Of a stretch of 64,000 nt of DNA, positions 36,503-57,741 are shown piece after piece. The stretch's first letter is position 1. The number at the start of each line of letters is the position of its first letter. The position numbers and the translations under genes were made by a program. Below the pieces are notes generated by a model. That model made no database searches. It was not told the origin of the DNA and saw only the letters and a list, made by a program, of their open reading frames with translations. Source of the DNA: Vibrio alfacsensis (GTDB taxonomy: Bacteria > Pseudomonadota > Gammaproteobacteria > Enterobacterales > Vibrionaceae); NCBI RefSeq assembly GCF_003544875.1, contig NZ_CP032093.1, positions 1,922,001-1,986,000 on the forward strand. The letters run 5' to 3'.

Positions 36503-36903
36503 ATGAAAAATTACTGTGTCTATTCCTCGCCTTTGGTGCACTTGCAGGCTGTTCATCAAATGATGATAAGCAACGCCAACTTGAGTTGATGGCTTCAAAC
36601 CGTGCAGGAGTATTGTCTGCAGGATTGCCGCTTGAATACGGCCCACTTAAAATCATGCGCATTTCTGCCAATAAAAACGTAGTAGAAATGATGATGATTT
36701 ATAACGACGATGCTCTCGGTGCCAAGCCATTAAACCAAGTGCTGAATACCAGTATTTACTCATACTGTAACACGCCAGCCGTTCGTGAACAGATTGATAT
36801 GGGCTTGCTGTATCGCATTAAGATCCGCAATTCACGTGGTCAATTGATGGCAGATGAATTGGTTTCAGAGCAAAGTTGTACGGCAACTCAACAGCCACAG
36901 TAA
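36503..36903 (+). pseudogene. AspS/GspS-beta type II secretion pilotin lipoprotein, frame broken near the start
   Basis: The main frame (visible from an internal ATG at 36586) encodes the AspS pilotin body (ASNRAGVLSAGLPLEYGPLK, IYNDDALGAKPLNQ) with the cysteine pair in SYCNT and EQSCT. Reading that frame upstream gives KLLCLFLAFGALAGCSSNDD, a lipoprotein signal with lipobox LAGC, but it lacks a start codon. The expected ATG at 36503 is one base out of frame behind a five-A run (36506-36510); six A would restore it. AspS-type pilotins guide the GspD secretin to the outer membrane. The defect may be a sequencing error. Confidence 0.85.
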
Positions 36904-36950
36904 TTATCTCGCCAATCGATTTCATTCAATTCGGCGTGAACTAAACAGAT

Positions 36951-36980
36951 AAAAGCGAGGACAGATAACCTCGCTTTTTT
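36951..36980. terminator. Bidirectional terminator between the pilotin gene and metE
   Basis: AAAAGCGAGG (36951-36960) and CCTCGCTTTT (36969-36978) pair around an eight-base loop. The A and T flanks allow termination in both directions. Confidence 0.88.
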
Positions 36981-37023
36981 ATGCCATATTAATCGTAGTC
37001 AGTAACGGTTTATTATTGCTTAC

Positions 37024-39309
37024 TTATAAGTCTAACTCTGCACGTAACTTCTTCGTTGCAGACACCAAGTTCGATAGTGCAGCTTCAGTTTCTGCCCAAT
37101 TTCGAGTCTTCAACCCGCAGTCTGGATTAACCCACAAACGCTGAGGTGGGATTTTCTCCGCCGCTTTCTTAATAAGACTTTCAATCCATGCCTCTGTCGG
37201 AATATTTGGCGAATGAATATCATACACCCCCGGACCAATTTCATTGGGGTAATTAAAGTCTTCAAACGCTTTGAGCAATTCCATGTTTGAACGGGAAGTT
37301 TCAATCGTAATGACGTCTGCATCCAACGCTGCGACAGAGTCGATGATCTCATTAAATTCGCTGTAGCACATGTGAGTATGAATTTGAGTTTCGGATCTAG
37401 CGCCTGCGGCTGAAATCTTAAACGCGTCTACCGCCCATTTTAAATACTCATCATGGTCACGTTTTTTCAAAGGCAAGCCTTCACGAATTGCAGGCTCATC
37501 AATTTGGATAATGTTGATTCCCGCGCTTTGTAAATCGGTCACTTCATCACGCAGTGCAAGGGCAAGTTGCTGTGCAATCTGTTTGCGAGAGATATCTTCG
37601 CGTGGGAATGTCCAACACAGAATCGTCACTGGGCCTGTAAGCATGCCTTTCATCTTCTTTCTTGTGAGTGATTGTGCGTAAGTAGACCACTCGACGGTAA
37701 TCGGTTTTTCACGTTCAATATCGGCAACCACTATCGCAGGCTTAACACAACGTGAACCATAGCTTTGTACCCACCCAAACTTGGTCGTTTGGAAACCATC
37801 TAAGTTTTCGGCAAAGTATTCCACCATATCATTGCGCTCTGCCTCACCATGAACGAGGACATCTAGATCGAGCGCTTCTTGTCGCTTGACCGCATCAGCG
37901 ATGTGACCCTTAAGTGCCTGTTTATAATCTGCTTCAGACAATTGACCATTTCGGAACGCGTTTCGTTGTACTCGAATTTCTCCCGTCTGTGGAAAAGATC
38001 CAATTGTTGTGGTTGGTAAAAGCGGCAAGTCGAGGACTTCAGCCTGATGTACAGCTCGCTCCAAATAAGGTGCACTTCGCTGTGCAAGTGATGCACTGAT
38101 GCTATTCAAACGAGACTGAACCTGAGGCTTATTTACATGCGTTGCGGTTTTACGATCTTTAATTGGTTGGCTATAAGTGTCGCAAGCTAAAATCGCATTT
38201 TTATCACCATCGAGCGCTCGTCCCAATAACGCCACTTCAGAGACTTTCTGCTTCGCAAACGCAAACCAGCTCCTCACTTCCTCACTCAGCGCAGGTTCTA
38301 AATCTAAATCCACTGGGCTATGAAGCAGTGAACAAGACGTTGCGATCCACAACTTATCACCAAGTCGCTCTTTAACAGGTTGCAAGCGCAGGAGCTGTTC
38401 ACTCAGATCAGAACGCCACACATTACGACCGTTAACAACGCCCGCAGAAAGCACCCAATCATCGGGCAATTTTTCGACGACCTCCTCCAATTGCTCAGGT
38501 GCAGCCGACAAATCAACGTGTAATCCATCCACACTCAAACCAACAATCTTATCTAACGTGTCGCTAACGGAATCAAAGTAAGTAGTGAGCAATACCTTTA
38601 TGTCGCAGCGAATGACTTGATAAGCCAGTTTAAACGCATCGGCCCACTTATCTTCAAGTTCAAGAGACAAAATAGGCTCATCAATCTGCACCCATTCCAC
38701 TCCCTGACTTGCCAGTTTAGCAAGTATGGCTTGGTAAGCCGCAAGTAAACGAGGAAGCAATGCGAGGCGATCAAAGCCCTCCTCAACCTCTTTTCCCAAA
38801 TATAAGTAACTCAATGGCCCTAATAATACTGGCTTGACACTATGGCCCGCTTTAACCGCTTCATTCACTTCTTCAAACAGTTGTGGCCAACTCACTTCGA
38901 AAGTATCGTCTTTACTAAACTCCGGCACAATATAGTGATAGTTAGTGTTGAACCATTTCGTCATATCTGAGGCAGCAGCGCCTGAACACCCACAATCAGC
39001 TTTCGATTGACCACGACCTACTGTAAATAGCGTGTCCAAATCAGGAAAACCTGTCGCATGACGTTTTGGAACATGCCCAAGAAGTAATGTCGTCGCTAAT
39101 ACGTGATCGTACCAAGCAAAATCCCCTGCTGTTGTAAAACTAAGCCCGGCTTCTGACTGTATGTTCCAGTTTTTATCGCGTAGCGTTGCTCCTACATGTT
39201 TCAGTTCCGCTTGGTTGATTTCACCGCGCCAATATTTTTCCTGTGCAAATTTGAGCTCACGTTTTTCTCCAATGCGAGGATAGCCAAGAATATGCGTTGT
39301 CGTTGCCAT
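37024..39309 (-). CDS. metE: Cobalamin-independent methionine synthase
   Basis: The 761-residue protein has two barrel domains. The C-terminal catalytic half carries zinc ligands in HTHMCYSEF (His, Cys), a later Glu and VNPDCGLK (Cys), plus [17 protein letters not shown]. It transfers methyl from methyltetrahydrofolate polyglutamate to homocysteine. It is divergent from metR with MetJ boxes between. Confidence 0.97.
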
Positions 39310-39392
39310 GTCCGTATTCCTTATTCACTGTTTTATCTTAAGGCAGAACATCAAGAACTTTCGTAGGTGATTTACGTGAAGAACATTTATTA

Positions 39393-39518
39393 AGATGTCT
39401 GGATGGCTAAAACTATCACTCCCATTGTCTGAATGAACAACCTCCAATTATTCAACGTGTTTATTAGAAAAATTCATGGTCATGTTCATTAAGTCAATAA
39501 TTAGCCGTCTAGACGTTT
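39393..39518. promoter_or_regulatory. MetJ (met box) sites between metE and metR
   Basis: AGCCGTCT and AGACGTTT at 39503-39518 are adjacent met boxes, each 7 of 8 to AGACGTCT. A second, weaker pair AGATGTCT and GGATGGCT lies at 39393-39408, nearer metE. MetJ with SAM should repress both genes. I could not place an exact MetR site (TGAA-N5-TTCA). Confidence 0.72.
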
Positions 39519-39584
39519 ACATATCCGGATGATATGGGTAAGTTAAGAATACTCATGACAGGGAAATAAGGATGAAAGAGATTC

Positions 39585-40496
39585 ATGGTAGAATTAAAAC
39601 ATTTGCGCACCCTCACTTCGTTAAGAGATACCGGGTCACTCACTGCGACCGCGACAGCATTGCACCTGACGCAATCTGCTCTCTCTCATCAAATTAAAGA
39701 TCTGGAATCTCGTATTGGTGGGCAATTGTTTTTACGCAAAACTCGCCCGGTTAAGTTCACATCGGAGGGCGAGATCTTGCTTCGCCTTGCTGACGATATC
39801 TTGCCAAAACTGGCAATGGCAGAAAACGATATTGCAAGCTTAAAAGAAGATGTAAATGGTCGGCTGCACATGGCGATTGAATGCCACTCTTGCTTTCAGT
39901 GGCTAATGCCTGCCCTCAAGGAATACCAACTCACTTGGCCAAGCGTCACATTAGACTTTTCTTCTGGTTTCGGATTTGAACCTCTACCCGCGCTATTAGC
40001 CGGAGAGCTAGACTTAGTCATCACCTCCGATATTCAACCACGTTCAGAAGTGCATTACGAACCCCTGTTTGATTTTGAAATGCGATTAATCACTTCTACC
40101 ACTCACCCTTTGGCCAATAAAGATACGATAGAACCGGCTGATCTTACCGATCAAACCATGCTTTCTTACCCAGTACAAAAACAAAGGCTCGATGTCGTGA
40201 AACACTTCTTGCAACCGGCAGGTATTGAGCCTGCAAAATGGAAACAGGCGGATAACACGCTAATGCTTGTGCAAATGGTATCGGCAGGATTAGGGGTCGC
40301 GGCACTCCCAAACTGGGCAATTTCAGAGTTTTCTCGCCAAGGGTTAATAACCAGTAAACCTTTTGGTGACGGACTATGGCGTCGTTTGTTTGCAGCAACG
40401 CGACATTCAGAGAAAGATAAACGTTATCTACAAGCGTTTTTTGCAACCGCACGTCAACAATGCAAAAGCCACCTTGACGAAATCAAAGTAGCTTAA
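39585..40496 (+). CDS. metR: MetR, LysR-family activator of methionine genes
   Basis: The 303-residue protein has an N-terminal winged HTH (TGSLTATATALHLTQSALSHQIKDLE) and a periplasmic-binding-like effector domain (MAIECHSCFQWLMPALK, LDLVITSDIQP). MetR uses homocysteine as coactivator for metE. Divergence from metE and the shared met boxes support the assignment. Confidence 0.95.
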   Translation: MVELKHLRTLTSLRDTGSLTATATALHLTQSALSHQIKDLESRIGGQLFLRKTRPVKFTSEGEILLRLADDILPKLAMAENDIASLKEDVNGRLHMAIECHSCFQWLMPALKEYQLTWPSVTLDFSSGFGFEPLPALLAGELDLVITSDIQPRSEVHYEPLFDFEMRLITSTTHPLANKDTIEPADLTDQTMLSYPVQKQRLDVVKHFLQPAGIEPAKWKQADNTLMLVQMVSAGLGVAALPNWAISEFSRQGLITSKPFGDGLWRRLFAATRHSEKDKRYLQAFFATARQQCKSHLDEIKVA

Positions 40497-40516
40497 GTCA
40501 TAATAAATAATTGAGA

Positions 40517-40717
40517 TTAGCGTTCGTAAGATTTGAATTGATTGGTGAGTGGGTCATATTGATAACCGAGCATATCAAGTTTACCCACAACTGATTCAAC
40601 GTCCATTTCATACATTGAAACGAGATCTTCAAAGCTGTCGCACTCTAAGCGCAGCTTCTCATTAACGATACCTAGCAAAATAATGCTATCCCAGTTCGTA
40701 ACATTGCTTAAATCCAT
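40517..40717 (-). CDS. DUF4250 small protein
   Basis: The 66-residue protein has the family pattern SIILLGIVNEKLRLECDSFE, then KLDMLGYQYDPLTNQF. No function is known to me. It is convergent with metR. Confidence 0.8.
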   Translation of the reverse strand: MDLSNVTNWDSIILLGIVNEKLRLECDSFEDLVSMYEMDVESVVGKLDMLGYQYDPLTNQFKSYER

Positions 40718-40782
40718 CGCGACACTCCTCTAAACCAAGGTGTTTAACCTCTATTCTGCTCAATGTCGATACCACATTGATA

Positions 40783-40849
40783 TGAGGTTATTTAGTAAGC
40801 GTAGACTCAATCTAATGATTTAAAAGTGAGCTTGGTCTAAATAACCTCA
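40783..40849. repeat. Perfect 13-base inverted repeat
   Basis: TGAGGTTATTTAG (40783-40795) and CTAAATAACCTCA (40837-40849) are exact inverted arms around 41 bases, between two minus-strand genes. It could be a stem-loop after the membrane-protein gene, a pair of regulator sites, or the remnant of a small element; nothing between the arms looks like a gene. Confidence 0.7.
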
Positions 40850-40884
40850 ACTTATTATCTTGATGGACCCAACTTCAGTTTTGC

Positions 40885-41595
40885 TTAAGCACCAAGTTGG
40901 AACAAACCTTGTAAACTCGTCATGGAAGCAAGTGCAAGTACCAATGCCGCCGCCAACTGAACCTTATTTGCTGTTTTGTGGGTGAATATGTGCCAGCACC
41001 AAACCACGATCGCAATCACCAACATTGCCAGTGACGCTAAAATGTGTTGTGTCACAGAGTGCAGTGTTGCTTCATCTAGCTGATAGGCAGAGAACAACGT
41101 CATCACCACCAGCATCATACCGGAGACAACGCCTGTCACTGGTAAAATTCGGTGGAACGCTTGTAAACGACTGCGTGCAATGACCAAAAGTAACTGTGCA
41201 AAAACGGCACCAAGAAAGAAAACCATCAATGCCATCGACGCGCCAGCTGCCCAATGAGGCTGTTCGAATATTTGGATGCTCACATAGGCAAAAGCCAAAC
41301 CATTGGCTAAATGCAGAGCCCATAGCGGGCCTTTTTCGCGGGTTTTCTTGGTCTGAACTTGAGAGTAGAAGTAGAAAATCGCAAACACGATCATGAATGC
41401 TTCAATTCGAAGTGACGCCACTGCTAACCAAAGTACGCCAATCGACGGCAGCATCTTGTGCAAACGTCCACGTTGCCCCGGACAAATATCGCCCTTAATC
41501 ATAAGCAGCGTTAACAGCGCTTGTGCGCCAAACAACATTGGAGGAAAAGTTAACAGCAGTTGTTGAATCATGTTGAATACAAACTCAAAAGTCAT
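40885..41595 (-). CDS. Predicted seven-helix membrane protein of unknown function
   Basis: The 236-residue protein has about seven hydrophobic segments, for example LLLTFPPMLFGAQALLTLLM and ALMVFFLGAVFAQLLLVIA. Short basic loops such as CPGQRGRLHK and HTKK-like segments fit an inner-membrane topology. I do not recognise a family motif. Confidence 0.65.
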   Translation of the reverse strand: MTFEFVFNMIQQLLLTFPPMLFGAQALLTLLMIKGDICPGQRGRLHKMLPSIGVLWLAVASLRIEAFMIVFAIFYFYSQVQTKKTREKGPLWALHLANGLAFAYVSIQIFEQPHWAAGASMALMVFFLGAVFAQLLLVIARSRLQAFHRILPVTGVVSGMMLVVMTLFSAYQLDEATLHSVTQHILASLAMLVIAIVVWCWHIFTHKTANKVQLAAALVLALASMTSLQGLFQLGA

Positions 41596-41670
41596 TTTGG
41601 GATGGCGATAATATCAAATCACTTATCGCCAAACCACCTAAACCCAACATCGCTATTCTGTAAATGGTAG

Positions 41671-43323
41671 CTAAACTGACGCTAAATAACTCAGCACATC
41701 CTCTTGGGTCAATAAACCACGAAACTCATTTTGAGAATCGCACAAAACCCAAGGAAACGGGGAGCCAACGTTAATATTTTCTTTAATTGTCGACACAGAC
41801 GAATCAACACTGACACTCGCAAACTCGGTATCCATAATTTTACTTAAGGGATGCTCCCAAACATGTAATTTCATTTTGGTACATGTATTTGCTTCCATTT
41901 CTGCACTCAAATATTGTTCGAGTCGTTCTTTGGTCACCAAACCGATGCATCTATTTGAATCCATCACTAACAGGGGCACCTGCGGTTGAAGATTCACAAA
42001 CTCCATCGCCAAAGAAAGCGGTGCATTCTGCTTTAAACGTCTAATATTTGAATGACAGAACGTTAAGAGTGGTGACTCCGATAATTGTTCCTGGACCACA
42101 TTATCAAAAAGTGTCTCATAAGATATCTTGGTTTTAAACGCACTCAGTGGAACGGCAGGTGAAAACAAAAAGCCTTGCATATAATCAACACCAATTGAAG
42201 CTAATACGTTGAGTTCTTGCTCATTTTCAACACCCTCTGCCACAACTTTTACATTTAACTTGTGCGCCAGTTCTGTGATCATTTTAACGATATTGTAACT
42301 GGTACTGTCGACCACAATATCTTTAATGAACTTACGGTCAATTTTGACTAAATCGAACTGATCTTCTTTAAGGTAAGCGAACGATGAATACCCCGTTCCA
42401 AAATCATCAATAGCAACATCGATCCCTAACTTCCTTATTTGCTCCAAAGCAACACTATGCTCCTGATCTTGTTCAAAATAGGCGGTTTCTGTCAATTCAA
42501 TAGTGATGTTGCTTGGGTTAACCCCACTCTCTAAAATGATCTCAAAAGAGCTTTGTAAAACTTGTAGTGCATTCAATTTGGTATTTAACGAACGATTAAT
42601 GGTTAAACCAACTTCCGCACCGTAAATACCCTGAATATCAGGCAATTGGCTTAGTGCACTTTTACAAACAACGTCATCTAGTGCAGAGATCAGCTCTAGG
42701 TCCTCGATGATCGCAATCATCTCTTGAGTATCAAAGGTCTCTGTTTCATTAGAAAAACGAGCCAACGCCTCAAACTTGACGACATTGCCCGTGCTCACTT
42801 CAACGATTGGCTGAAAATAAACATCAACCGCTTCATTCTCTATTACCTTGTGTAAAAAATCTTCAAGGTAAAACCGCTTAACCAACTCACTATGTAACTC
42901 GCTGCTATAAAAATTGAAATAACTGCGATCGTCAGCACTCGATGAAACCATGGCTTGTGCGGCATGGGCAATCGCATGTCCAGCGGTTTGAGCATCATAA
43001 CCTAATACCGCCACACCGGTTTGGCCCTCAACAATCGTAGAATACACACTCGATCCAACTTCGTTTTTCAAATCCGCTAAAAAACCACGCAAAACCATCT
43101 GAATCAAACGCAATGGGCTCAGCCACTGGCACTGTGGCGTTTGTAAACATATCGCAAAAACATCTCGCGATAATTGGCCAGAAAGGCTCACATGGCGACT
43201 TCGCATAATGTAGTCAGAAAAACATAACTGTTGCTCTAATCTAGATTGAGAGGAAAAAGCAGGCCTAAACGTAATCACTACGCTAATATTTTTTGAACGA
43301 CTACATTGAGCCAAATTGATCAA
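41671..43323 (-). CDS. c-di-GMP protein, C-terminal part: degenerate GGDEF, EAL, CBS pair
   Basis: This 550-codon frame opens with a TTG that is not a natural beginning; reading upstream in frame gives FCTDIS and LPPRKEFEEQL, a GGDEF-domain start. The GGDEF site is degenerate (SRDVFAICL). The EAL domain is intact: KFEALARF, ELTETAYF, IDDFGTGYSSF, VKIDRKFIKD, VVAEGVEN, MQGFLFSP, so phosphodiesterase activity is plausible. Two CBS-like segments follow (LLVMDSNRCIGLVTKE, RGLLTQEDVLSYL). It belongs to the same gene as 43320-44129, separated by one missing base near 43435. Confidence 0.85.
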   Translation of the reverse strand: MINLAQCSRSKNISVVITFRPAFSSQSRLEQQLCFSDYIMRSRHVSLSGQLSRDVFAICLQTPQCQWLSPLRLIQMVLRGFLADLKNEVGSSVYSTIVEGQTGVAVLGYDAQTAGHAIAHAAQAMVSSSADDRSYFNFYSSELHSELVKRFYLEDFLHKVIENEAVDVYFQPIVEVSTGNVVKFEALARFSNETETFDTQEMIAIIEDLELISALDDVVCKSALSQLPDIQGIYGAEVGLTINRSLNTKLNALQVLQSSFEIILESGVNPSNITIELTETAYFEQDQEHSVALEQIRKLGIDVAIDDFGTGYSSFAYLKEDQFDLVKIDRKFIKDIVVDSTSYNIVKMITELAHKLNVKVVAEGVENEQELNVLASIGVDYMQGFLFSPAVPLSAFKTKISYETLFDNVVQEQLSESPLLTFCHSNIRRLKQNAPLSLAMEFVNLQPQVPLLVMDSNRCIGLVTKERLEQYLSAEMEANTCTKMKLHVWEHPLSKIMDTEFASVSVDSSVSTIKENINVGSPFPWVLCDSQNEFRGLLTQEDVLSYLASV

Positions 43324-44129
43324 TTGCTCTTCAAACTCTTTTCTGGGCGGTAAAAATGCAGAAAACTGCCCCCGATTCTCGCCAGCATTAATTTTCTTCC
43401 ATAATAACGATGTGGAGATATCGGTACAAAATCGAAATAAAGTGTTTGGCCAGAGATGAAGTTAATACGATAGATACTATGGTAATGAACCTGATTGCTG
43501 CCATTTTTAGTACGGCTCATCAAACTTCCGTTCCAATAGCCTTTGCTGTCAATTTCTTTCCATAATTGTTCGTAGAACTCTTCGCCATGCTGTTCTGAAC
43601 GAAAAAAAGAGGTTTTTTCGCCAATTAATTCATCACGCAGATAACCCATTTGGTATTGAAAAGCACTGTTGCATCCAATAATGCACAGATTTTGATCCGC
43701 TACCGAAATTCCTACGTTAGGTAAATCAAAAACCGTATCTAGAATGTTCGCGATATCCTCCAACCCTGAAATACACACTTGAGGAATCAAAATACCTCGG
43801 ATTTCATGATCATTAAGGCGCTCAAAACGGATATCGACGAGCACGAGGACCCCTGGATTTGGCATCAAACAACACGAGAGAAATCCATCTTCTTCGCTTG
43901 TTTCACTATCCACAATTTTTTGTTTGATCTCCTCAATCTGGCTCGTACGCGAATGCTTAAGCAGATCGTCAATGCCATTTATGGGGTGTGGTAAGTGAAA
44001 AGCCGACATAATTTGTTGTTGATCCGCAACAAATTCACAGGTGTCGGTATCGTAGTACCATTCTATTGCCCGACTTCCCTCGGGTGTTACATGCACATCT
44101 CCTTGTGCAGTAGCCAGTAATTTTGCCAT
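43320..44129 (-). CDS. c-di-GMP protein, N-terminal PAS part (frameshifted from the EAL part)
   Basis: From ATG at 44129 (GGAGG six bases upstream; an in-frame TTG at 44135 is less likely), the protein has a region of unknown fold and a PAS domain (DVFDLPNVGISVADQNLCII, GYLRDELIGEKTSFFRSEQH, WNGSLMSRTKNGS). After SGQTLYF the frame runs into unrelated wording and stops at 43320. The alternative frame from that point gives RFCTDISTSLLWKKINAGEN, the expected PAS-to-GGDEF linker. One extra T in the TTT run (plus-strand A, 43435-43437) would join the two parts into one protein of about 820 residues. Confidence 0.82.
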   Translation of the reverse strand: MAKLLATAQGDVHVTPEGSRAIEWYYDTDTCEFVADQQQIMSAFHLPHPINGIDDLLKHSRTSQIEEIKQKIVDSETSEEDGFLSCCLMPNPGVLVLVDIRFERLNDHEIRGILIPQVCISGLEDIANILDTVFDLPNVGISVADQNLCIIGCNSAFQYQMGYLRDELIGEKTSFFRSEQHGEEFYEQLWKEIDSKGYWNGSLMSRTKNGSNQVHYHSIYRINFISGQTLYFDFVPISPHRYYGRKLMLARIGGSFLHFYRPEKSLKSN

Positions 44130-44398
44130 TACCAACCTCCAGCCTAATTCAGTTATCTTATTGGTTTTTAAGTAACCATTTCGTATTTATATTGCTGAAC
44201 CTAATGATTTCCTAGCCTGGCATACACTAACTCATATATGCACAACGTTTAGTATAGGTATAAACATTGTTTTGTGTACAGAAGCTTGTTTATTTAAAAC
44301 ACAACTTTTGTGCGCCTAACGACTATTTAAGCTAACCGTTACTATGTGGATATTTTGTTAACAAACCCAGCAGAGAGCTAGGCAACTAGAGCAATTAC

Positions 44399-44428
44399 AG
44401 TATCAGTGCTCAATAATAGTATCAGTGC
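44399..44428. repeat. Direct repeat upstream of ygiQ
   Basis: AGTATCAGTGC occurs at 44399-44409 and 44418-44428, a 19-base period (about two helical turns), suggesting paired regulator sites. A TATAAT at 44538-44543 lies 29 bases before the ygiQ start. The rest of 44130-44571 holds no gene. Confidence 0.4.
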
Positions 44429-44571
44429 GATTGATAATCGCCGTCTCTCTGGGCTTAATATTGTTCTTAACACTCTCCATCTTTTGATTACTTGGGCATA
44501 AAGTCATTTGGGTATAGATACCTGATCACCAAATCGCTATAATTCGCGCTCCCTGGAACAGAGAGCAAAAT

Positions 44572-47001: not shown

Positions 47002-47035
47002 GCGAGTGCCGTCAATTCAATAAAACTTGAATACT

Positions 47036-47072
47036 AAAGGGCTCCAGAGATACCTCTGGAGCCCTTTGTTTT
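47036..47072. terminator. Bidirectional terminator between ygiQ and the flavoprotein gene
   Basis: Perfect 14-bp stem AAAGGGCTCCAGAG/CTCTGGAGCCCTTT with an ATAC loop, followed by GTTTTG. Confidence 0.92.
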
Positions 47073-47098
47073 GTCTAAATCTTGTTTAGAAAGAAAGC

Positions 47099-48421: not shown

Positions 48422-48457
48422 ATTTATTACCTAAAATAACCTGAACTCAGGAACGGA

Positions 48458-48480
48458 AGAGCACCCACATTGGGTGCTCT
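48458..48480 (-). terminator. Intercistronic hairpin after the cystine transporter gene
   Basis: AGAGCACCC/GGGTGCTCT 9-bp stem with a five-base loop. The minus-strand tail (TCCGTTCC) is poor in T, so it may attenuate or stabilise the message. Confidence 0.5.
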
Positions 48481-48495
48481 AAGTTAAGTTTAGAA

Positions 48496-49901
48496 TTATA
48501 CCGCCGCTTCTTTTGTTACTGTTTCAGTAACATCTGCGTTGTATTGCTCAGTGTTTAGTGAGCCATTCTTCTTCGCGGTAACAACACCTGACAACATAGA
48601 GCCAGAGATGTTAAGCGCAGTACGTGCCATGTCGATTAACGCTTCGATAGAAACCAGAATCGCCACAACCGTAATGTCTAGACCCATGATGGTTAGTACT
48701 GCTACTGCTGCAAACGTTGCACCGCCACCCACACCTGCGATACCGAATGAAGCAATCGTGATAACCGCAATCAGTTGTAGGATGAAGCTTAGGTCAACAG
48801 GCATGCCCATCACTTGTGCAGCCATGATAGCGAGCATTGCTGGGTAGATACCCGCACAACCGTTCTGACCGATACTGGTACCGAATGTTGCTGACATGTT
48901 TGCCGTTTCTTCGTCCACACCTAGACGTTGAGTTTGAGTTTCAACGTTCAGTGGAATAGCCGCCATGCTTGAGCGAGAACCGAAGCCAAATACTAGCACT
49001 GGCCAGATTTTCTTCATGAACTTCGCAGGAGACAGACCGAACATAGACACCATCACGAAGTGGATAGCGAACATTACACCGATTGCCACGTAGCTTGCTA
49101 GTAGGAAGCGACCCATTTCTGCTAGTGCGAATAAATCGTTTGTCATCATGAACGTGGTCATCAGAGCAAATACACCGTAAGGCGTCAGCTTTAGAATTTC
49201 ACGAACCATTGAAAGTACCACTTCTTTTGCAGAGTTGATGAAATCAACAAAGCTTTGCACTTTTTCAGGCTTACGGTTTTTCACTTGCAGGATACAGTAG
49301 CCAAGGAACATACCAAACAATACGGTTGATAGTGTTGAAGTACGCTCCGAGCCCGTTAGCATGTCAAAAATGTTGGTTGGGATGATAGACAGCGCCATAC
49401 CTGACAGGCCACTATTCGTCATTGCATCTTGCGTTGCGACTAGTGCATCACCACGAGCTTCAATTGCACCGTTAGAGCCAATGGTACTGACGAGTGCGTT
49501 TGCATCGATACCGAATAGGTAGATACTTGCGATACCAACGCCAGCTGAAATAGCACAAGTGAAAAGTAGAATACCGATGATTTTTGGTGCAATACGTGAT
49601 AGCGCACCACCGCCCTCTACGTTCATGATCGAAGAGATCATCGCCACAAATACGAGTGGGATAACGATCATTTGTAGAAGCTTAATATAGCCTTTACCGA
49701 ACACAGAAATCAGTTCAGCAAAACCTGCCGTTGCCACGTTACCAACGCCAAACACCAACTGAATCGCACCGCCGAATAACAAACCCGCCGCAAGTGCGCT
49801 TAGTACGCGGAAGTTAAAACTTTCTTTTGTTTCTTAAAGTTCGCGAGTAATGCATAAAATCCAAAAAACAGGATGCTTAATCCAATGAATGAAACGCTCA
49901 T
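48496..49901 (-). pseudogene. tcyP: TcyP-type L-cystine transporter, frame broken near residue 27
   Basis: The long frame (48496-49782) encodes a DAACS-fold transporter of the TcyP/YdjN branch (KLLQMIVIPLVFVAMISS, FGSRSSMAAIPLNVETQ, GTSIGQNGCAGIYP). Its apparent start lies inside a helix. A proper start, ATG at 49901 with GGAG upstream, begins MSVSFIGLSILFFGFYALL but hits a stop after about 33 codons. Past 49830 the transporter frame reads FNFRVLSALAAGLLFGG. One added base in the T runs at 49821-49828 joins them. Reported TcyP imports cystine with high affinity. The defect may be technical. Confidence 0.85.
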
Positions 49902-49941
49902 GAGAATCTCCTATTGATACCCATTTATATCCGACAATCGG

Positions 49942-50325
49942 TTATTTTTTGTATGCTATGGCTTCAACTTCAACCAAGGCGTCTTTTGGTAGTCTTGCAG
50001 CTTCAACGCAAGAACGAGCAGGTGCATTCTCTGTGCCGAACACTTCCGTGTACACTTCGTTAAATGCAGCGAAGTTTTCCATATCGGATAAGAAGCAGGT
50101 CGTCTTCAGTACCGTGTCTAAACCCGCACCGCTTGCTTCTAAAACCGCTTTTAAGTTTTCTAAAGACTGACGCGCTTGCTCTTTGATGCCGCCTTCAACA
50201 AACAGCATGGTTTCAGGAACCAAAGGCAATTGGCCTGAAGTGTAAACCATCTCGCCATAAGCCGTACCTTGAGAGTAAGGACCAATGGCTGCAGGGGCTT
50301 GTTCAGTGGCAATAATCTGTTTCAC
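49942..50325 (-). CDS. RidA-family enamine/imine deaminase
   Basis: The 127-residue YjgF/RidA protein has [21 protein letters not shown] and the conserved Arg in [22 protein letters not shown]. RidA removes reactive 2-aminoacrylate made by PLP enzymes acting on serine or cysteine, which fits a cystine-uptake setting. It follows the regulator by 32 bases on the same strand. Confidence 0.92.
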
Positions 50326-50357
50326 AATAAAACTCCTAACTAATTAAAATGATAAAT

Positions 50358-51023
50358 TTATTCTGATTTAAACTCGCGGATAAACTTGTAGACAGCCTGA
50401 CGACTGATCCCAAGTTGCTCTGATACTTGTGTGGTCGTTTCTTTTAGCTCAAACACGCCGTTATCAAACAAACAACGAATAATGGCTTTGTTACGACCTT
50501 TGCATGAGATCGTCGCGTCTTGCTCGACTTCGACTATTGCCGCGCTCAATGCCTGCTTGATCACATCATTTGCGTTATTACTGAATGTCTCACTGACTAG
50601 GGTTTGTGACACATTGCACTGAGGCAAAAGCGTTTTAACGATCTCCGGAAATGGGTATGACAAGTTCATATTGATGCAGAGCATACCAATCGGCTTTTGC
50701 CCGGGACCGGCCAAAATACACGAGGTCGATTTAAGTAATGAACCATCGGCAGCATTGGTGAAGTAGCTTTTTGGTGAGACTTCTCCAGTCTTCTCAAACG
50801 CTCGCCACATTCTTAAGCCTAAGTCGGTAATTGGTGAACCGATTTTACGGCCGGTGTGATGGCCATTTACGATCTTCACCACTGAATTTTCCAGACTTTC
50901 AAACGAATGAATGACCACCTCGCAATAAGGGCCAATTAAGTCGGCAACAGTGTCAGCAACTCGGAAATAGTTGCTTAAGTACTGTCGATCTTCATCGCTG
51001 AATCGAACTTGATTTACACTCAT
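50358..51023 (-). CDS. YheO/DauR-like transcriptional regulator
   Basis: The 221-residue protein has an N-terminal YheO PAS-like domain (LIGPYCEVVIHSFESLENSV, TSCILAGPGQKPIGMLCINM) and a C-terminal HTH (TTQVSEQLGISRQAVYKFIREF). P. aeruginosa DauR of this family senses D-amino acid metabolism. Being first in a run with RidA and the cystine-type transporter, it probably controls them. Confidence 0.87.
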   Translation of the reverse strand: MSVNQVRFSDEDRQYLSNYFRVADTVADLIGPYCEVVIHSFESLENSVVKIVNGHHTGRKIGSPITDLGLRMWRAFEKTGEVSPKSYFTNAADGSLLKSTSCILAGPGQKPIGMLCINMNLSYPFPEIVKTLLPQCNVSQTLVSETFSNNANDVIKQALSAAIVEVEQDATISCKGRNKAIIRCLFDNGVFELKETTTQVSEQLGISRQAVYKFIREFKSE

Positions 51024-51405
51024 TATTTTGGTTTACAATTTTGAACTCAATGACAATAAACTACTTCTTTAGAGTTAATTCAGCAATGCTAAGTAAACTT
51101 CTGTAAACCGAAATAAACGTACAAAATCGCAGCAAAATGTGTTTTTCATTTAAATTTGCGTACAAATTTCGAACTAGATCACCAAAAACCAGCAATTAGG
51201 TTTAATTTTTTAAATCCCATCAAAGTTTAAATATTTAAAATATAAAGTTGCATTTTGAGCACTTTACTGATCTAGAACAAATTTTCACCTCAATAAAAAT
51301 CGATCTACACGACCGGCGGCTAACAATAAGACGACGGAGATCTCAAAAGACGAGAGCTCAAGATTTCTATTACCCCTACCCTGTTACCAAAATAAAACAA
51401 ATATA

Positions 51406-51435
51406 ATAAAAAGACCGAGCTTATTGGCTCGGTCT
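51406..51435 (-). terminator. Terminator after the chemoreceptor gene
   Basis: Minus-strand AGACCGAGC/GCTCGGTCT stem with a six-base loop, then TTTTTATT. It lies in 51024-51496, which shows no gene and is A/T-rich. Confidence 0.88.
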
Positions 51436-51496
51436 AGTGGGTTATTCAATGTTAATGAGAATCATGATCGGCAAGTCATGGACATTAAAACAACCA

Positions 51497-53593
51497 TTAC
51501 GACAACTTAAACTTGCTCAACTCGTCATGCAGATCGGTTGCTTTCATTGTGAGTTCATTGCTGATTTCTACCGATGAGGTCATGGTGTCCATTACCTCTA
51601 CTGCCGTGTCATTGATGATCACAACGTTACGGTTGATCTCTTCTGCGACTGAGCTTTGCTCTTCAGCCGCTGACGCAATCTGGTTGTTCATATCATTAAT
51701 CACATCAATAGCCTGATTGATCTCTGATAACGCCAAATGAGCAGCCTGTGTTTCACCCTTTGTATCAATGGCTTGCTTTTGGCTTTGTTCCATCAGTACG
51801 ACAATAGAATGCGTTTCTTGCTCTAATCTGGATAGCATAGTGCGAATCTCTTCCGTCGAGCCTTGAGTGCGATTTGCAAGGTTACGTACTTCGTCAGCAA
51901 CCACCGCAAATCCACGACCAGCTTCTCCTGCACGGGCAGCCTCAATCGCCGCATTGAGTGCAAGTAGATTGGTTTGGTCAGCGATGCCTCCAATCTCACT
52001 CAAAATACTCTGAATCGCCGTGCTTGACGCCACAAGATTTTGAGTTTGTTGCTGAGCATCATTCACTTGTAGGGCTAAGCTGCCGACTGCATTTGCGGCG
52101 TTGCTCATGCGAGCCATGCCATCTAGGCTGTTGCTCTGCACTTGGCTTGCAGCTGCAGCAGCTTGAACCGCAGAGTTTGCGACTTCGTGCGCGGTTGCGC
52201 TCATTTCATTAATCGCCGTTGCCAGCGAGTTAACTTCATTGACTTGAGCATTGAGTTGATCGCGTGACACTTCTGCACGAGCTTGACCCTCAGCGGCACT
52301 TTTATCCACTTGATCCGCTGTCGCCATAACGGTCAATAGCATTTCTTGCATGCGGAATAAGAAAGTATTAAACCAATGTGCAAGTTGCGCCGTTTCGTCT
52401 TTACCCTTGACCTCAATACGATAAGTCAGATCGCCCTCGCCCTGTGCCGCGTCTTTGAATCGCTCAACCAGGTTGCTGAGTACGTTGCCCAAAGAGTTCG
52501 CAATATAAGCCATTGCCGCGATCCCAATCAGAGCGGCGATGATCCCAGCCCATACGCCTTGCTCTAGTGCTTTGGCATTCTGCTCATCACTCCATGCTGC
52601 ATATTCGTCAACGCTTTTTTTCAAATGAGTCGTTGGAACCGACACCATCACCACCCATGGCGCATCGCTCGTATCAATCGATGTAATGGCATACTCTTCT
52701 CCACCAAACGTCACTAAGCCAGCACCTTGTCGCTTGGCAATAGATTGGATCTTAGTCCATTGCGTGGCTAATTCTGAGGACACTTTTTTACCAACCATAC
52801 TTGCAGAGCGGCTGTCGGCTAAGGTAATACCTTTCCATGAGGTAATAAGGATTTTTCCCTGACCATCAAACAAATGACGCGCAAATTGTTCACTTTGGCT
52901 TTGCAGCTCATGCAGCGACAAGTCGAAACCTAATGAGCCGATAATTCTGCCATCTTGTTTGATTGGTTGGCTAATGGTCGTAATGAGCTCTTGTTTGCCA
53001 CGAACCATGTACATATACGGTTCCATCACAAACGTTTTACCGGTTTGGTAAGGCATCAAATGCCAATCATCAATTCGCTCACCGTTGCTATTTAGCGCTG
53101 TATTATTAAAGCTCTCCATTGCAACCGCATCGAAGCTATTTTTAGAATTTGGGGAGAAGAAAGGGGCAAGATAGCCTTGGCTATTAAAACCATCTGCCGG
53201 ATTCAATGTTGCTTGTTGTGGCCACGTTTTATCTTGCCACACCATATAGCCCGCAAATACGGCCTTATTTTGTGCTTCTAGCGCCGCGATAAACTGTTTA
53301 ACAATAAGATCTGGCGCTGCATTTGTTTTTGAACTCAATTCTAGAATAGAACGCGCTTGCTTGAGGTTAGCTAATACAGGATGAAGCTGGTTTGCAACAT
53401 TCAACCCTTGCTGAATCGCGGTGTTTTGTAAATCCGTTGTAGTCGCATCTGTCAGTTGCGTTTTGACTTTCGCCGTGACTTGTTCACTCACATCGGTAAA
53501 AGCGTTGGTTGTCATCCCCATCGCAATCAATAGGGTGAACGCCATCGCGCCGCCCGCACTGACTGCAATTCGCGTACGTATACTATTAAACAT
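51497..53593 (-). CDS. Methyl-accepting chemotaxis protein with periplasmic Cache domain
   Basis: From ATG at 53593 (an in-frame start at 53641 adds an atypical N-terminus) the protein is about 698 residues. It has an N-terminal membrane anchor ([19 protein letters not shown]), a dCache-type periplasmic sensor ([24 protein letters not shown]), a second membrane helix, a HAMP domain ([20 protein letters not shown]) and the signalling hairpin tip ([20 protein letters not shown]). It likely senses a small ligand such as an amino acid. The 480 bases upstream, 53594-54073, show no gene. Confidence 0.93.
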
Positions 53594-54073
53594 GTTCGTC
53601 TCTATCGCTGATGATAGCAATCTCAGTAAACAACCGGTCATTCTCGCGTGTTATAACGCTTTAAAATGCTCAGCAGTTACCGTGATTGATATGAATTGAT
53701 CATTAAAATTTTCGTGGATTTTAAACAAGAAAAGCGAACAGAAGATGTAAGAACATTAATGGGAAAGAAATGGAAAAATAAACTTTATTAACAACGATAA
53801 CTATCAGGCTGATTGATGCTCATCAGTAGTAATTTTAAACTCAAATCACCCTTATAAATTAAACTATAACCAACTGTATTTATTATGTTTTTATAGAATC
53901 TCAGTTACTCTAAATTCTTAATGACAAAACTACTATTAGCTTGATAACAAAAGAATCCACACAACAAGAAATGTGACTTATATCTCAATTTATTTTTATA
54001 ATTGGATTTATCGATACTTTTCAATTCGTTACTTGCCCACAAAGCCAAAGGTTTGATAGCCTAGGACGAGCCT

Positions 54074-54454
54074 TTAACGAAATACCCACTTAGTGCTTAA
54101 TAAGTAGTTACTCACCATCCCCGTTAGTATTCCCATGACCAATGCCACATACACCATCAAATCTTGAGTCCCTAGTACCAGCGTTACTCCTTTGAATACG
54201 ATGAAATTTGGTAACGCACTGATACAGGCGCATGCCATAAATTTTTGCCACTGTACCAATGGGTTGTATTTTTCAGCGTGAGAAAAAGTGAGTTTACGAT
54301 TGCCAAACCAAGTTGTCGTCGCGGCAAACAAAAAAGCGATGCCACGAGCGATCATTAGCCCCATGCCGAACCATTGGTACAACGCCGTAAACATGAGTGT
54401 GTCGACGACAAAGCCGACACCTCCCACGAACGCGAATTTAAATAAGCTTCTCAT
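54074..54454 (-). CDS. GtrA-family membrane protein
   Basis: The 126-residue protein has four hydrophobic segments and the GtrA pattern FAFVGGVGFVVDTLMF and TTWFGNRKLTFS near the middle. GtrA proteins are thought to flip undecaprenyl-phosphate-linked sugars. It is the last gene of the GtrB/ArnT-like/GtrA set. Confidence 0.9.
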   Translation of the reverse strand: MRSLFKFAFVGGVGFVVDTLMFTALYQWFGMGLMIARGIAFLFAATTTWFGNRKLTFSHAEKYNPLVQWQKFMACACISALPNFIVFKGVTLVLGTQDLMVYVALVMGILTGMVSNYLLSTKWVFR

Positions 54455-54457
54455 GCC

Positions 54458-55864
54458 CTACCCTGTGACACAGGTATAAAGCGAGCGCTTTGATTTGGCA
54501 GTAAACTCAGGGGAGCAGCTCAAGGCTTGCTTGTGAATCAAAGCATCCACCTCATCCGATTTACCAATTAAGTGAAACGTTTTCAGGTTGTTAAGTACGT
54601 TTACACTGTCGAGTTTCTTCGCTTGCCCTTGACTGTAAAACTGGCCGGAAAATGGGCGTTTACCAACATAGAAAGCAGGTGCACTATCAACTATGTTTTC
54701 AAATATCACGCGGTCACTCTTACTGTCTGCCTTACCCATATTCAGTACTAACATCGCGATCATCAGCAATGCGGGTAACACCGCTGCGGTGCCGGTCAGC
54801 CATTTAAAGTCGTGCTTATCCACCAGCATAGCAATCAAGATACCTAACGCTGGCACGCCCGGTAGTACATAAGCAGGAAGAATATTCCCTGCCATCGTAA
54901 ACAAGATCATAGGTGAGATTAACCAGCACATTAAGAAACTAAATAGCCCTTGATGATCTGTCTCGATTGCTTTCAATACGTTACGGCGTTTCCACGCCAA
55001 TATCGGCAATACAAGTGACCAAGGCGCTGCTGACTGTAGCCAGAACAGCCAAATCATACCGCGTGGCTCATCATGAGCAGAACCATATAAGTCCCCCTCC
55101 CAGCCGCTCACAACAAAACGCTTAAAGTGTTCACCAACGATAAAATAATCAATGAAACCCGGCGTCGCACGTTCTGCCATAATGTACCAAGGTAAGGCAA
55201 CCACCAGCATCAGAGCCAAGCCGGATAAGAGCGGAAATCGTTGCCACAGCGCTTTAAATGCACCAAAGAAACCATGCTGCAGTACAAGCCATGGAAATAC
55301 AGCTATCCCCATAATCACAATGGCGACAGGCCCTTTAGCTAATAAGCCACACGCCAAGCCAAAGAAGCCCAAGTAGCCCCACAATCGACTGTGTTTATCT
55401 TTGCCCAACCAACAATAATAAAAACCGACCATCGATATCGTCATTGCTAACGTCAGAGCCATATCCGTCATGACTGCGCCAGCAGCGATAGAGAAAATGC
55501 CACACGTGGCCAGCACTAACGCAGCAATCAGTGCACTGAAGCCTGCTCGATAAGCCATAAAAGCGACCAATACAATCGTCGCAACGCCCGCTAGCCAATG
55601 AGGAGCTCGCACTGCGAATTCATTCAAGCCAAAGAGTTCAATGCCGTACGCACTCATCCATGTAAACAGCGGCGGTTTACCCCAGAAAGGCACGCCATAA
55701 TCAAATTGGGGTGTCAACCAGTTACCCGTTTCCACCATCAAACGCGCCATTTCACCATAACGTGCTTCAGTGGTGTCCATCAAAGGGTAAGCCGCGAGTG
55801 AAATGAGGCGAAGTACAAGAGCAAATGCCAATAACAACCACAGGTGGGTTTTATTAATACTCAT
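54458..55864 (-). CDS. ArnT-like GT39-type glycosyltransferase
   Basis: The 468-residue polytopic protein begins LWLLLAFALVLRLISLAAYP and has the periplasmic-loop motif MDTTEARYGEMARLMVETGN with the catalytic-type Asp and Glu-Ala-Arg-Tyr, then FWGKPPLFTW, as in ArnT/PMT transferases. It would transfer a sugar from undecaprenyl phosphate to an envelope acceptor; whether this is lipid A or another molecule is unknown. Confidence 0.87.
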   Translation of the reverse strand: MSINKTHLWLLLAFALVLRLISLAAYPLMDTTEARYGEMARLMVETGNWLTPQFDYGVPFWGKPPLFTWMSAYGIELFGLNEFAVRAPHWLAGVATIVLVAFMAYRAGFSALIAALVLATCGIFSIAAGAVMTDMALTLAMTISMVGFYYCWLGKDKHSRLWGYLGFFGLACGLLAKGPVAIVIMGIAVFPWLVLQHGFFGAFKALWQRFPLLSGLALMLVVALPWYIMAERATPGFIDYFIVGEHFKRFVVSGWEGDLYGSAHDEPRGMIWLFWLQSAAPWSLVLPILAWKRRNVLKAIETDHQGLFSFLMCWLISPMILFTMAGNILPAYVLPGVPALGILIAMLVDKHDFKWLTGTAAVLPALLMIAMLVLNMGKADSKSDRVIFENIVDSAPAFYVGKRPFSGQFYSQGQAKKLDSVNVLNNLKTFHLIGKSDEVDALIHKQALSCSPEFTAKSKRSLYTCVTG

Positions 55865-55866
55865 GA

Positions 55867-56907
55867 TTACGCGGTTTCTCCTAATTTAAACTTTAAAGGC
55901 GGGATGGTTTGATGCTTTGCCGGTTGCTCGTAAACGGATTGAACGAGATACAGTGGGCGTTGTTTGGTTTCGACAAAAATACGACCGATGTACTCCCCTA
56001 ATAAGCCGATAGACAGTAGCTGAATGCCTCCCAACGCAAGCTGCACTACCATCATTGATGGATAACCAGAAACGGGTTCACCAAACACCACCGTTTTCAT
56101 CACGATAAATGCGCCATAAACAAAGGCACTCAACGCAACAAGTCCACCAACGACCGTCGCTAAGCGCAGTGGTCGAATAGAGAATGACGTAATGCCGTCC
56201 ATCGCGAGACCAATGAGTTTGAGGTAGTTCCATTTGGTTTCGCCACAAAAGCGAGCATCACGCTCAAATTGAACCGTTGCCTGCTTGAATCCCGGCCAAG
56301 AAAAGATGCCTTTCATATATCGATTGCGCTCTGGTAACGCATTAATGTGTTTAACGACTTCTGCGCTCAATAGACGGAAATCACCGACGTTCTCCGGTAC
56401 ATCTAATTTCGCCATGCTATTAAGCACTTTGTAAAAGCAAGCGGCCGAGAAGCGTTTGAACCAAGTTTCACCGTGGCGTTCGCTGCGCTGCATGTTAACC
56501 ACGTCATAACCCTCGCGCCATTTAGAGACCATTTTTGGAATAAGCTCTGGCGGGTCTTGCAAATCCGCATCAATCACGATCACCGCTTCACCTCGGCAAT
56601 GCTCTAGACCGGCACTCATCGCCGATTCCTTACCGAAGTTACGACTAAGCGCAATACATCGAATGTCACTCGCGGACTGCATAAAGTTCTGTGCAATCAT
56701 TAAACTGTTATCTTTGCTGCCGTCATCAACATAGATAATTTCACAGAGTTCAGGCATACCATCCAATACAGCAGTTAAGCGGCGATGAAATTCAGGTAAG
56801 ACTTCTTGCTCATTAAAGAACGGCACTACAACAGACAAAACTGTTTGAGACTCAGAGTGTTGGCTCACCTTTGAAAAGGTTGCTTCGTGAATATTGAAGG
56901 TTGTCAT
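55867..56907 (-). CDS. GtrB/ArnC-like polyprenyl-phosphate glycosyltransferase
   Basis: The 346-residue GT2 enzyme has VVPFFNEQEVLPEFHRR, IIYVDDGSKDNS, VIVIDADLQDPPELIP and CFYKVLN near the middle, with two C-terminal membrane helices. It should load a nucleotide sugar onto undecaprenyl phosphate for the ArnT-like enzyme. GGAAGAG precedes the ATG. It is first in the operon and divergent from the two-component system. Confidence 0.92.
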   Translation of the reverse strand: MTTFNIHEATFSKVSQHSESQTVLSVVVPFFNEQEVLPEFHRRLTAVLDGMPELCEIIYVDDGSKDNSLMIAQNFMQSASDIRCIALSRNFGKESAMSAGLEHCRGEAVIVIDADLQDPPELIPKMVSKWREGYDVVNMQRSERHGETWFKRFSAACFYKVLNSMAKLDVPENVGDFRLLSAEVVKHINALPERNRYMKGIFSWPGFKQATVQFERDARFCGETKWNYLKLIGLAMDGITSFSIRPLRLATVVGGLVALSAFVYGAFIVMKTVVFGEPVSGYPSMMVVQLALGGIQLLSIGLLGEYIGRIFVETKQRPLYLVQSVYEQPAKHQTIPPLKFKLGETA

Positions 56908-57064
56908 GCTACTCTTCCACTGTATCCGATGAATGGATGCAGCTTACAAAGAACGGCGTGAAAGAGTTGTTGTTGACATCTTTTTCACACCCTTAGTGCA
57001 TAATGTTCGGTTAAGGCACATATCACCAAGTAACCTCAAAAAACACCGAATTGGAGAGCAATAC

Positions 57065-57741
57065 ATGAAACGTGTTCTGTTAGTGGAAGATAATCGAGAA
57101 ATTGCAGGTATGCTGTTCGATTATTTTGAGTGTGCAGGTATGGAACTCGACTATGCGGACAACGGTGAACTCGGCCTTAAATTAGCGATGGAAAACACAT
57201 TCGATATCATCTTACTCGACTTGATGTTACCTCGTATGGATGGCCTCACTGTCTGCAATAAACTCCGCGATGCCGGCAACAACACACCCATTTTGATGCT
57301 CACTGCGCTCGACAGCAGAGATGATATGCTCAAAGGGTTCCAACACGGTGCCGATGATTACCTCACCAAACCGTTTGATCTGGATATTCTAGAAGCGCGC
57401 ATGACCGCATTGATTCGTCGTTACCGTGGCACCGTGGCATCGAGCAAATTGGTATACGGAGAGGTGTCTATTGACCAAAAAACCCGTAAAGCGTATCGCC
57501 AAGACAAATTACTTGCCTTAAACCCAACCACTTACGCCATTTTAGAAATGCTAGTGAAAAGTGCCCCCGATCTGGTTACCCGTGAAGAAGTGGCGTTTCG
57601 CCTGTGGCAAGAAAACGAGCCAAATAATGACGTATTGCGTAGCCATATCTATCAACTACGTAATCAATTAGACAAACCGTTCGAAAACACTTACTGATGA
57701 CCATCCCTAAAGTGGGTTTCCGTTTGGAGTCTGGGGCATGA
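57065..57741 (+). pseudogene. OmpR-family response regulator, last codons frameshifted
   Basis: ATG at 57065 follows GGAGAGCAATAC. The receiver domain has VLLVEDNRE, phospho-Asp52 in IILLDLMLPRMDG and Lys in DDYLTKPF. The winged-helix domain (LALNPTTYAILEMLV, VLRSHIYQLRNQLDKPF) stops abruptly at 57697. The next frame continues as LMTIPKVGFRLESGA, the normal OmpR-type ending, and terminates in a TGA overlapping the kinase ATG (ATGA at 57738-57741). One added base in the T run at 57691-57692 or A run at 57684-57687 restores it. It may be a sequencing error. Confidence 0.9.

What the first reader, a model, noticed from the sequence alone, without database searches (positions are those of the whole stretch)
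36503..57741. Four genes in 21 kb each lack one base in or next to an A/T run
The pilotin (36506-36510), the PAS-EAL protein (43435-43437), the cystine transporter (49821-49828) and the response regulator (57684-57692) are each repaired by adding a single base to a short homopolymer. In every case the repaired frame gives a strongly expected feature: a lipoprotein signal, a PAS-GGDEF linker, a proper start with RBS, and an ATGA overlap with the kinase. None of the genes in the first 36 kb shows this. A shared technical cause, homopolymer under-calling in this part of the assembly, is the simplest reading; a slippage-prone strain is the alternative.
Basis: partly seen in the sequence, partly recalled or inferred. 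Interest (0 to 1): 0.7.

Follow-up and report, generated by a model that had tools for sequence, protein, structure and literature searches.

The report
Sequencing errors, not broken genes
Four Vibrio genes look broken by a missing base, but the same kind of gap turns up in many other places of this genome record and hardly ever in other strains of the species, so these are almost certainly sequencing errors rather than mutations.

Summary
In detail: all four genes step out of frame relative to intact relatives, in or beside a short A/T run. It is not special to this 21 kb. The record is a 3-contig genome of Vibrio alfacsensis. Against one relative, 39 distinct places in about 505 kb of aligned chromosome 1 coding DNA lack bases; 5 of 12 RND genes are split, on both chromosomes, against 0 of 10 in the relative. 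On the plasmid, where two other strains agree, this record has 49 shortened and 2 lengthened A/T runs among 556. Shortened runs crowd into two 16-kb patches, and the record's own branch has an ordinary transition/transversion ratio. One of its two tuf copies carries five gaps. Best reading: homopolymer under-calling in an insufficiently corrected assembly. A mutator strain is the rival, since mutL is itself split in the record, but spectrum and patchiness speak against it. No reads were available, and patchiness on the chromosome was not significant. An artefact; low interest beyond a data-quality warning.

The parts
36503..36903 (+). GspS/AspS-type T2SS pilotin gene; ATG 36503 is one frame off from the protein body; A run at 36506-36510
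41671..44129 (-). PAS-EAL-CBS protein gene, split into an upstream PAS piece (to about 43428) and a downstream EAL piece; T run of the coding strand at 43428-43431
48496..49901 (-). SDF-family (cystine/dicarboxylate-type) transporter gene; first 27 or so codons in another frame; step between about 49833 and 49816 among short A and T runs
57065..57741 (+). OmpR-type response regulator gene; last about 17 codons in another frame; step at 57684-57691 (A run 57684-57687)
57738..59024 (+). histidine kinase gene (HisKA, HATPase_c), open; its ATG overlaps the end of the regulator's displaced frame

Best explanation
The four frame breaks are consensus errors. The genome record was built from reads that under-call short homopolymers (mostly A/T runs of 5 or more), and it was not fully corrected, so runs are written one base short in many places, in genes and between them, on all three replicons. 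Shown: one-directional shortening of runs against two other strains, its patchiness on the plasmid, split genes on both chromosomes, a same-species-like intact copy of the PAS-EAL gene, and a tuf copy with five gaps beside an intact one. Inferred: that the reads are of a long-read type, that the patches are stretches of thin coverage or failed polishing, and that the living strain has all four genes intact.
For: Plasmid C3 lacks single bases against BOTH other strains at 98 places and has 10 single extras; strain VA-1 alone lacks 9 and has 11 extra, 04Ya108 lacks 8 and has 2 extra. A/T runs of 5 or more: 49 short, 2 long of 556; the same test gives 1 long of 506 for VA-1 and 1 short of 506 for 04Ya108. 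Two 16-kb patches hold 38 short of 135 runs, the rest 11 of 421 (the patches were chosen after seeing the bins). Independently of that choice, 45 of the 98 fall in one 16-kb span, against a maximum of 26 in 2000 shuffles. Lacks do not follow divergence: 48-64 kb has 315 C3-specific substitutions and no lack. 34 of 49 short runs are in coding DNA; indels not a multiple of 3 are in coding DNA in 77 of 123 (C3) against 10 of 36 (VA-1 v 04Ya108) (coding = ORFs of 100 aa or more). Chromosome 1: 42 of 45 break rows in G000 are net losses; in the reverse scan 18 of 25 rows say G072 is the longer. RND genes 5 of 12 split v 0 of 10. One tuf copy has 5 gaps in 1197 aligned bases against its twin, four losses and one gain. 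Published long-read errors match: deletions most often after runs of four to five, most commonly A/T (PMC12007338, passages read).
Against: No raw reads and no statement of the sequencing method were available. Clustering on the chromosome is not significant, and the reference-free run spectrum shows only a mild deficit (ratio of A/T runs >=5 to runs of 4: 0.42-0.49 in five G000 pieces v 0.50-0.51 in three G072 pieces) with no visible patch in the window. The coding share of C3 indels (77 of 123) is below the coding share of the plasmid (0.89), so some C3 indels are probably real. mutL is split in the record, as a mutator would show. Single domains of large families are mostly open (PF00005: 2 of 85 rows, one gene, hold stops; none of the 7 PF00133 rows of G000).
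Confidence: 0.95

Rival explanations
1. The strain is a true mutator: mismatch repair (MutL) is lost, runs slip, and the four genes are really broken in the living cell.
For: mutL lies in two frames in the record (residues 1-160 and 161-680 of the G072 protein), while another V. alfacsensis assembly has a full-length (672 aa) copy, 98% identical over the queried part (P0231).
Against: mutS is open. Transition/transversion ratio of C3-specific substitutions is 1.91, against 2.10 and 1.87 in the other strains; loss of MutL is known to raise transitions strongly (recalled). Shortening is patchy on the plasmid and nearly all losses. 29 of the 98 single-base lacks stand at a run of 0 or 1 of that base as written. 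One tuf copy has five gaps in 1.2 kb. The mutL break is of the same kind as the others and so is itself suspect.
Confidence: 0.03
2. Ordinary, independent real frameshifts (pseudogenes) in this strain, some or all four.
For: An intact copy elsewhere only shows that another isolate is intact. G072 also has a few breaks of its own (7 of 25 rows are losses).
Against: The density (39 places in 505 kb; 5 of 12 RND genes) is well above that of the relative, and the same signature appears on the plasmid against two strains that agree with each other.
Confidence: 0.02
3. Programmed frameshifting, transcriptional slippage or phase variation at A/T runs.
For: Each site lies at or beside a run.
Against: Relatives encode the same proteins in one frame. 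The four genes are unrelated. The runs are only 3-5 bases long as written, and the same shortening occurs outside genes (15 of 49 short runs).
Confidence: 0.005

Closest known systems
Gene-fragmenting indel errors of long-read bacterial assemblies (Kastor paper PMC12007338, passages read; Homopolish paper PMC8011154, only the start of the abstract seen in a search listing)
   Same: Deletions dominate, sit mostly in A/T runs, break open frames widely, and remain in finished-looking assemblies.
   Different: Here errors are patchy on the plasmid (two 16-kb stretches), and the sequencing method of the record is not known to me.
Mismatch-repair-deficient mutator genomes (recalled; papers seen only as a listing)
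   Same: Run slippage; a split mutL in the record.
   Different: No transition excess, nearly one-directional, patchy on the plasmid, and includes gaps outside runs.

Membership tests
Homopolymer under-calling in a long-read-type assembly | Runs shortened far more often than lengthened | tested here: met
   49 short v 2 long of 556 A/T runs >=5; 98 v 10 single-base differences
Homopolymer under-calling in a long-read-type assembly | Effect rises with run length | tested here: met
   A/T runs of 3, 4, 5, 6, 7, 8+: 0.0, 0.2, 6.9, 11.8, 15.4, 42.9% short (the last is 3 of 7)
Homopolymer under-calling in a long-read-type assembly | Absent from independently sequenced strains | tested here: met
   the same test finds 1 long of 506 runs for VA-1 and 1 short of 506 for 04Ya108; 04Ya108 was sequenced on PacBio RS II and assembled with HGAP (PMC9345347, passage); how VA-1 was sequenced I did not check
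Homopolymer under-calling in a long-read-type assembly | Blind to coding frame | tested here: inconclusive
   34 of 49 short runs in coding DNA; 77 of 123 v 10 of 36 for indels between the other two strains, but below the 0.89 coding share
Homopolymer under-calling in a long-read-type assembly | Accurate reads of the same strain contradict the record | not testable with these tools
   no reads held
Mismatch-repair mutator | A mismatch-repair gene is lost | tested here: inconclusive
   mutL split in the record, mutS open; the split may be an error
Mismatch-repair mutator | Excess of transitions on its branch | tested here: not met
   ts/tv 1.91 v 2.10 and 1.87 (plasmid only)
Mismatch-repair mutator | Slippage spread over the genome in proportion to runs | tested here: not met
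   plasmid: 38 of 135 runs short in two patches v 11 of 421 elsewhere; on chromosome 1 no significant clustering, which by itself would be compatible with a mutator
Programmed frameshifting or phase variation | Site and split frame conserved in relatives | tested here: not met
   relatives have one frame

The most novel reading that the evidence does not exclude
The strain truly lost MutL and is eroding: hundreds of real one-base losses in A/T runs, concentrated in hot stretches, are inactivating secretion, c-di-GMP, transport and signalling genes in a living Vibrio.
Probability: 0.02. Interest if true: 0.5.

Novelty: not a real feature. Interest (0 to 1): 0.1.

Why it matters
The whole-genome search tool holds one genome per species, and this is the one for its species there. 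Anyone reading it will find false pseudogenes, a false 'hypermutator' mutL genotype, split RND genes, a broken tuf copy and an apparently split infB. Gene-content or pseudogene studies that use it would be misled. As biology it is ordinary.

Tried and rejected
(1) Reference-free detection of patches by the ratio of long to short A/T runs: only a mild deficit and no patch visible in the window. (2) Clustering of chromosome breaks: not significant at 10, 20 or 40 kb bins (291, 243 and 565 of 2000 shuffles). (3) Essential genes as proof: infB has an open frame of 702 aa against 901 in G072 and lies in two frames, but the pieces overlap in a repetitive stretch and the length differs by more than one base, so I do not lean on it. 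The other broken genes that I recognised by eye (pyruvate kinase, asd, argG, gshA, topB, adhE, prfC) are not all strictly essential or may have a second copy (recalled). (4) C1:500-540 kb of G000 against C1:480-640 kb of G072: nothing aligned; the family places suggest that this part is inverted in G072. (5) A regular-expression look at the pilotin start in 11 relatives' DNA matched only the window's own sequence and was dropped. (6) Some of the 45 rows are probably not gene breaks (ORFs of 85-103 aa, an upstream extension of mutS); they were not removed, in either direction. (7) The grouping of the 20 G000 rows into 12 genes (7 open, 5 split) was made by eye; the weak C3 row (E 1.5e-8, stops inside) was left out. 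(8) 'Same species' for P0001 rests on 98% identity; its source gives no name. The pilotin search found a protein named V. alfacsensis at only 87% (P0133), which I cannot explain and did not use. (9) Split rows of 75-110 aa ORFs at 40.3-40.6 kb look spurious: a conserved 66-aa frame on the other strand there is unbroken against four relatives, and the neighbouring LysR gene is whole against one 303-aa relative.

Full report
What was checked. The window is G000:C1:1922001-1986000 of a 4.91-Mb, 3-contig Vibrio genome. Twenty kb of its plasmid are about 98% identical to plasmids of Vibrio alfacsensis strains 04Ya108 and VA-1, and the larger piece of its mutL is 98% identical to a MutL named V. alfacsensis, so the species is V. 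alfacsensis. That it is the record of strain CAIM 1831, called the 'database strain' in PMC9345347 (passages read), is my inference.

The four sites. 2579 ORFs of 60 aa or more from 76 fetched loci were laid on the window. The transporter splits against 35 of 36 aligned ORFs, the response regulator against 13 of 13, the PAS-EAL protein against 4 of 4. The other rows were short ORFs or weak overlaps. The pilotin is a subtler case: only its start codon is displaced, and no ATG, GTG or TTG lies in the body frame before the upstream stop. Pfam names: T2SS pilotin, PAS and EAL and CBS, SDF symporter, Response_reg and Trans_reg_C, HisKA kinase. An 819-aa intact protein 98% identical to the EAL piece exists in another data set; comparing it with the window places the break at the T run 43428-43431.

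Is the region special? Not clearly. One relative (G072, 3 contigs) was compared with 984 kb of G000 chromosome 1 (584 + 200 + 200 kb). About 505 kb aligned as coding DNA. In G000 there were 45 break rows, 42 of them net losses, merging to 39 distinct places; in the reverse direction there were 25 rows, of which 18 say that G072 is the longer and 7 that it is the shorter. Broken genes that I recognised by eye from the relative's proteins include pyruvate kinase, asd, argG, gshA, topB, adhE, prfC and an RND pump; mutL was confirmed by Pfam. Whole-genome domain searches extend this. PF00873 RND genes: 5 of 12 are split in G000 (3 on C1, 2 on C2) and 0 of 10 in G072, where one has an internal stop. 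PF00990 GGDEF domains: two are split in G000 (C1 793 kb and 1743 kb) and no such pair is seen in G072 apart from one pair that is alike in both genomes. PF00009: three of 18 G000 rows hold stops, all in one tuf copy; none of 15 in G072. PF00005 (own genome only): 2 of 85 rows, one gene. PF00133: no stops in either genome.

The decisive comparison. The plasmid of the same assembly can be compared with two other strains of the species: 184 and 176 indels for C3 v VA-1 and C3 v 04Ya108, but 42 for VA-1 v 04Ya108. Over 143,133 positions aligned to both, C3 lacks single bases against both at 98 places and has 10 extras. Among 556 A/T runs of 5 or more with one length in both other strains, C3 is short in 49 and long in 2, with a steep dependence on run length. 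Two patches of 16 kb hold 38 of the 49. The patches do not follow substitution density, and the C3 branch has an ordinary transition/transversion ratio. That branch carries about twice as many substitutions as each of the others (2320 v 1226 and 1181), with a peak at 148-156 kb that looks like a divergent segment and is not one of the patches.

The mutator rival. mutL is split in the record, mutS is open, and another V. alfacsensis assembly has a full-length MutL. Without reads this cannot be closed, but the patchiness on the plasmid, the absence of a transition excess, the gaps outside runs (29 of 98) and the five gaps in one tuf copy beside an intact twin point to consensus error. The mutL break is most simply one more error.

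Fit to the literature. Passages of PMC12007338 describe long-read assemblies in which deletion errors follow runs, most often of four to five bases and most commonly of A or T, and in which correction cut pseudogenes from 23.3 to 5.6%. The pattern here is of that kind.

Limits. No reads and no method statement for this record; chromosome 2 was tested only by domain families; patchiness on the chromosome was not demonstrated. The coding share of C3 indels (77 of 123) lies between that of indels between the other strains (10 of 36) and the coding share of the sequence (0.89), so some are probably real.

Noticed in passing
L199:2496-4507 (G000 C1 about 252.5-254.5 kb): mutL is in two frames in this record; a full-length copy exists in another V. 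alfacsensis assembly (P0231). A reader of the record could wrongly call the strain a hypermutator.
   Followed up: partly
L201:3198-4390 (G000 C1 293.2-294.4 kb): One of two tuf copies carries five gaps against the intact copy at C1 138.6 kb; one gap has neighbouring substitutions and lies outside any long run.
   Followed up: yes
G000 C3 (L109, L135-L142): The related plasmids of VA-1 and 04Ya108 are annotated with an exosortase A/PEP-CTERM exopolysaccharide system and many acyl-CoA-type catabolic genes, which seems unusual for a Vibrio plasmid.
   Followed up: no
G000 C3 148-156 kb: 500 C3-specific substitutions in 8 kb against 8-105 per 4-kb bin elsewhere: probably a divergent or recombined segment, not an error patch.
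   Followed up: no
window 43100-44135: This part of the PAS-EAL gene has a DNA match at E <= 1e-20 in only 8 of 227 genus genomes, its own included, so it is fast-evolving or patchily present.
   Followed up: no
L095-L099 (G000 C1 1782-1875 kb): Hardly aligns to the G072 stretch that flanks the window's counterpart; several short ORFs at about 1842-1858 kb hit one G072 place, perhaps repeated cassettes or mobile DNA.
   Followed up: no
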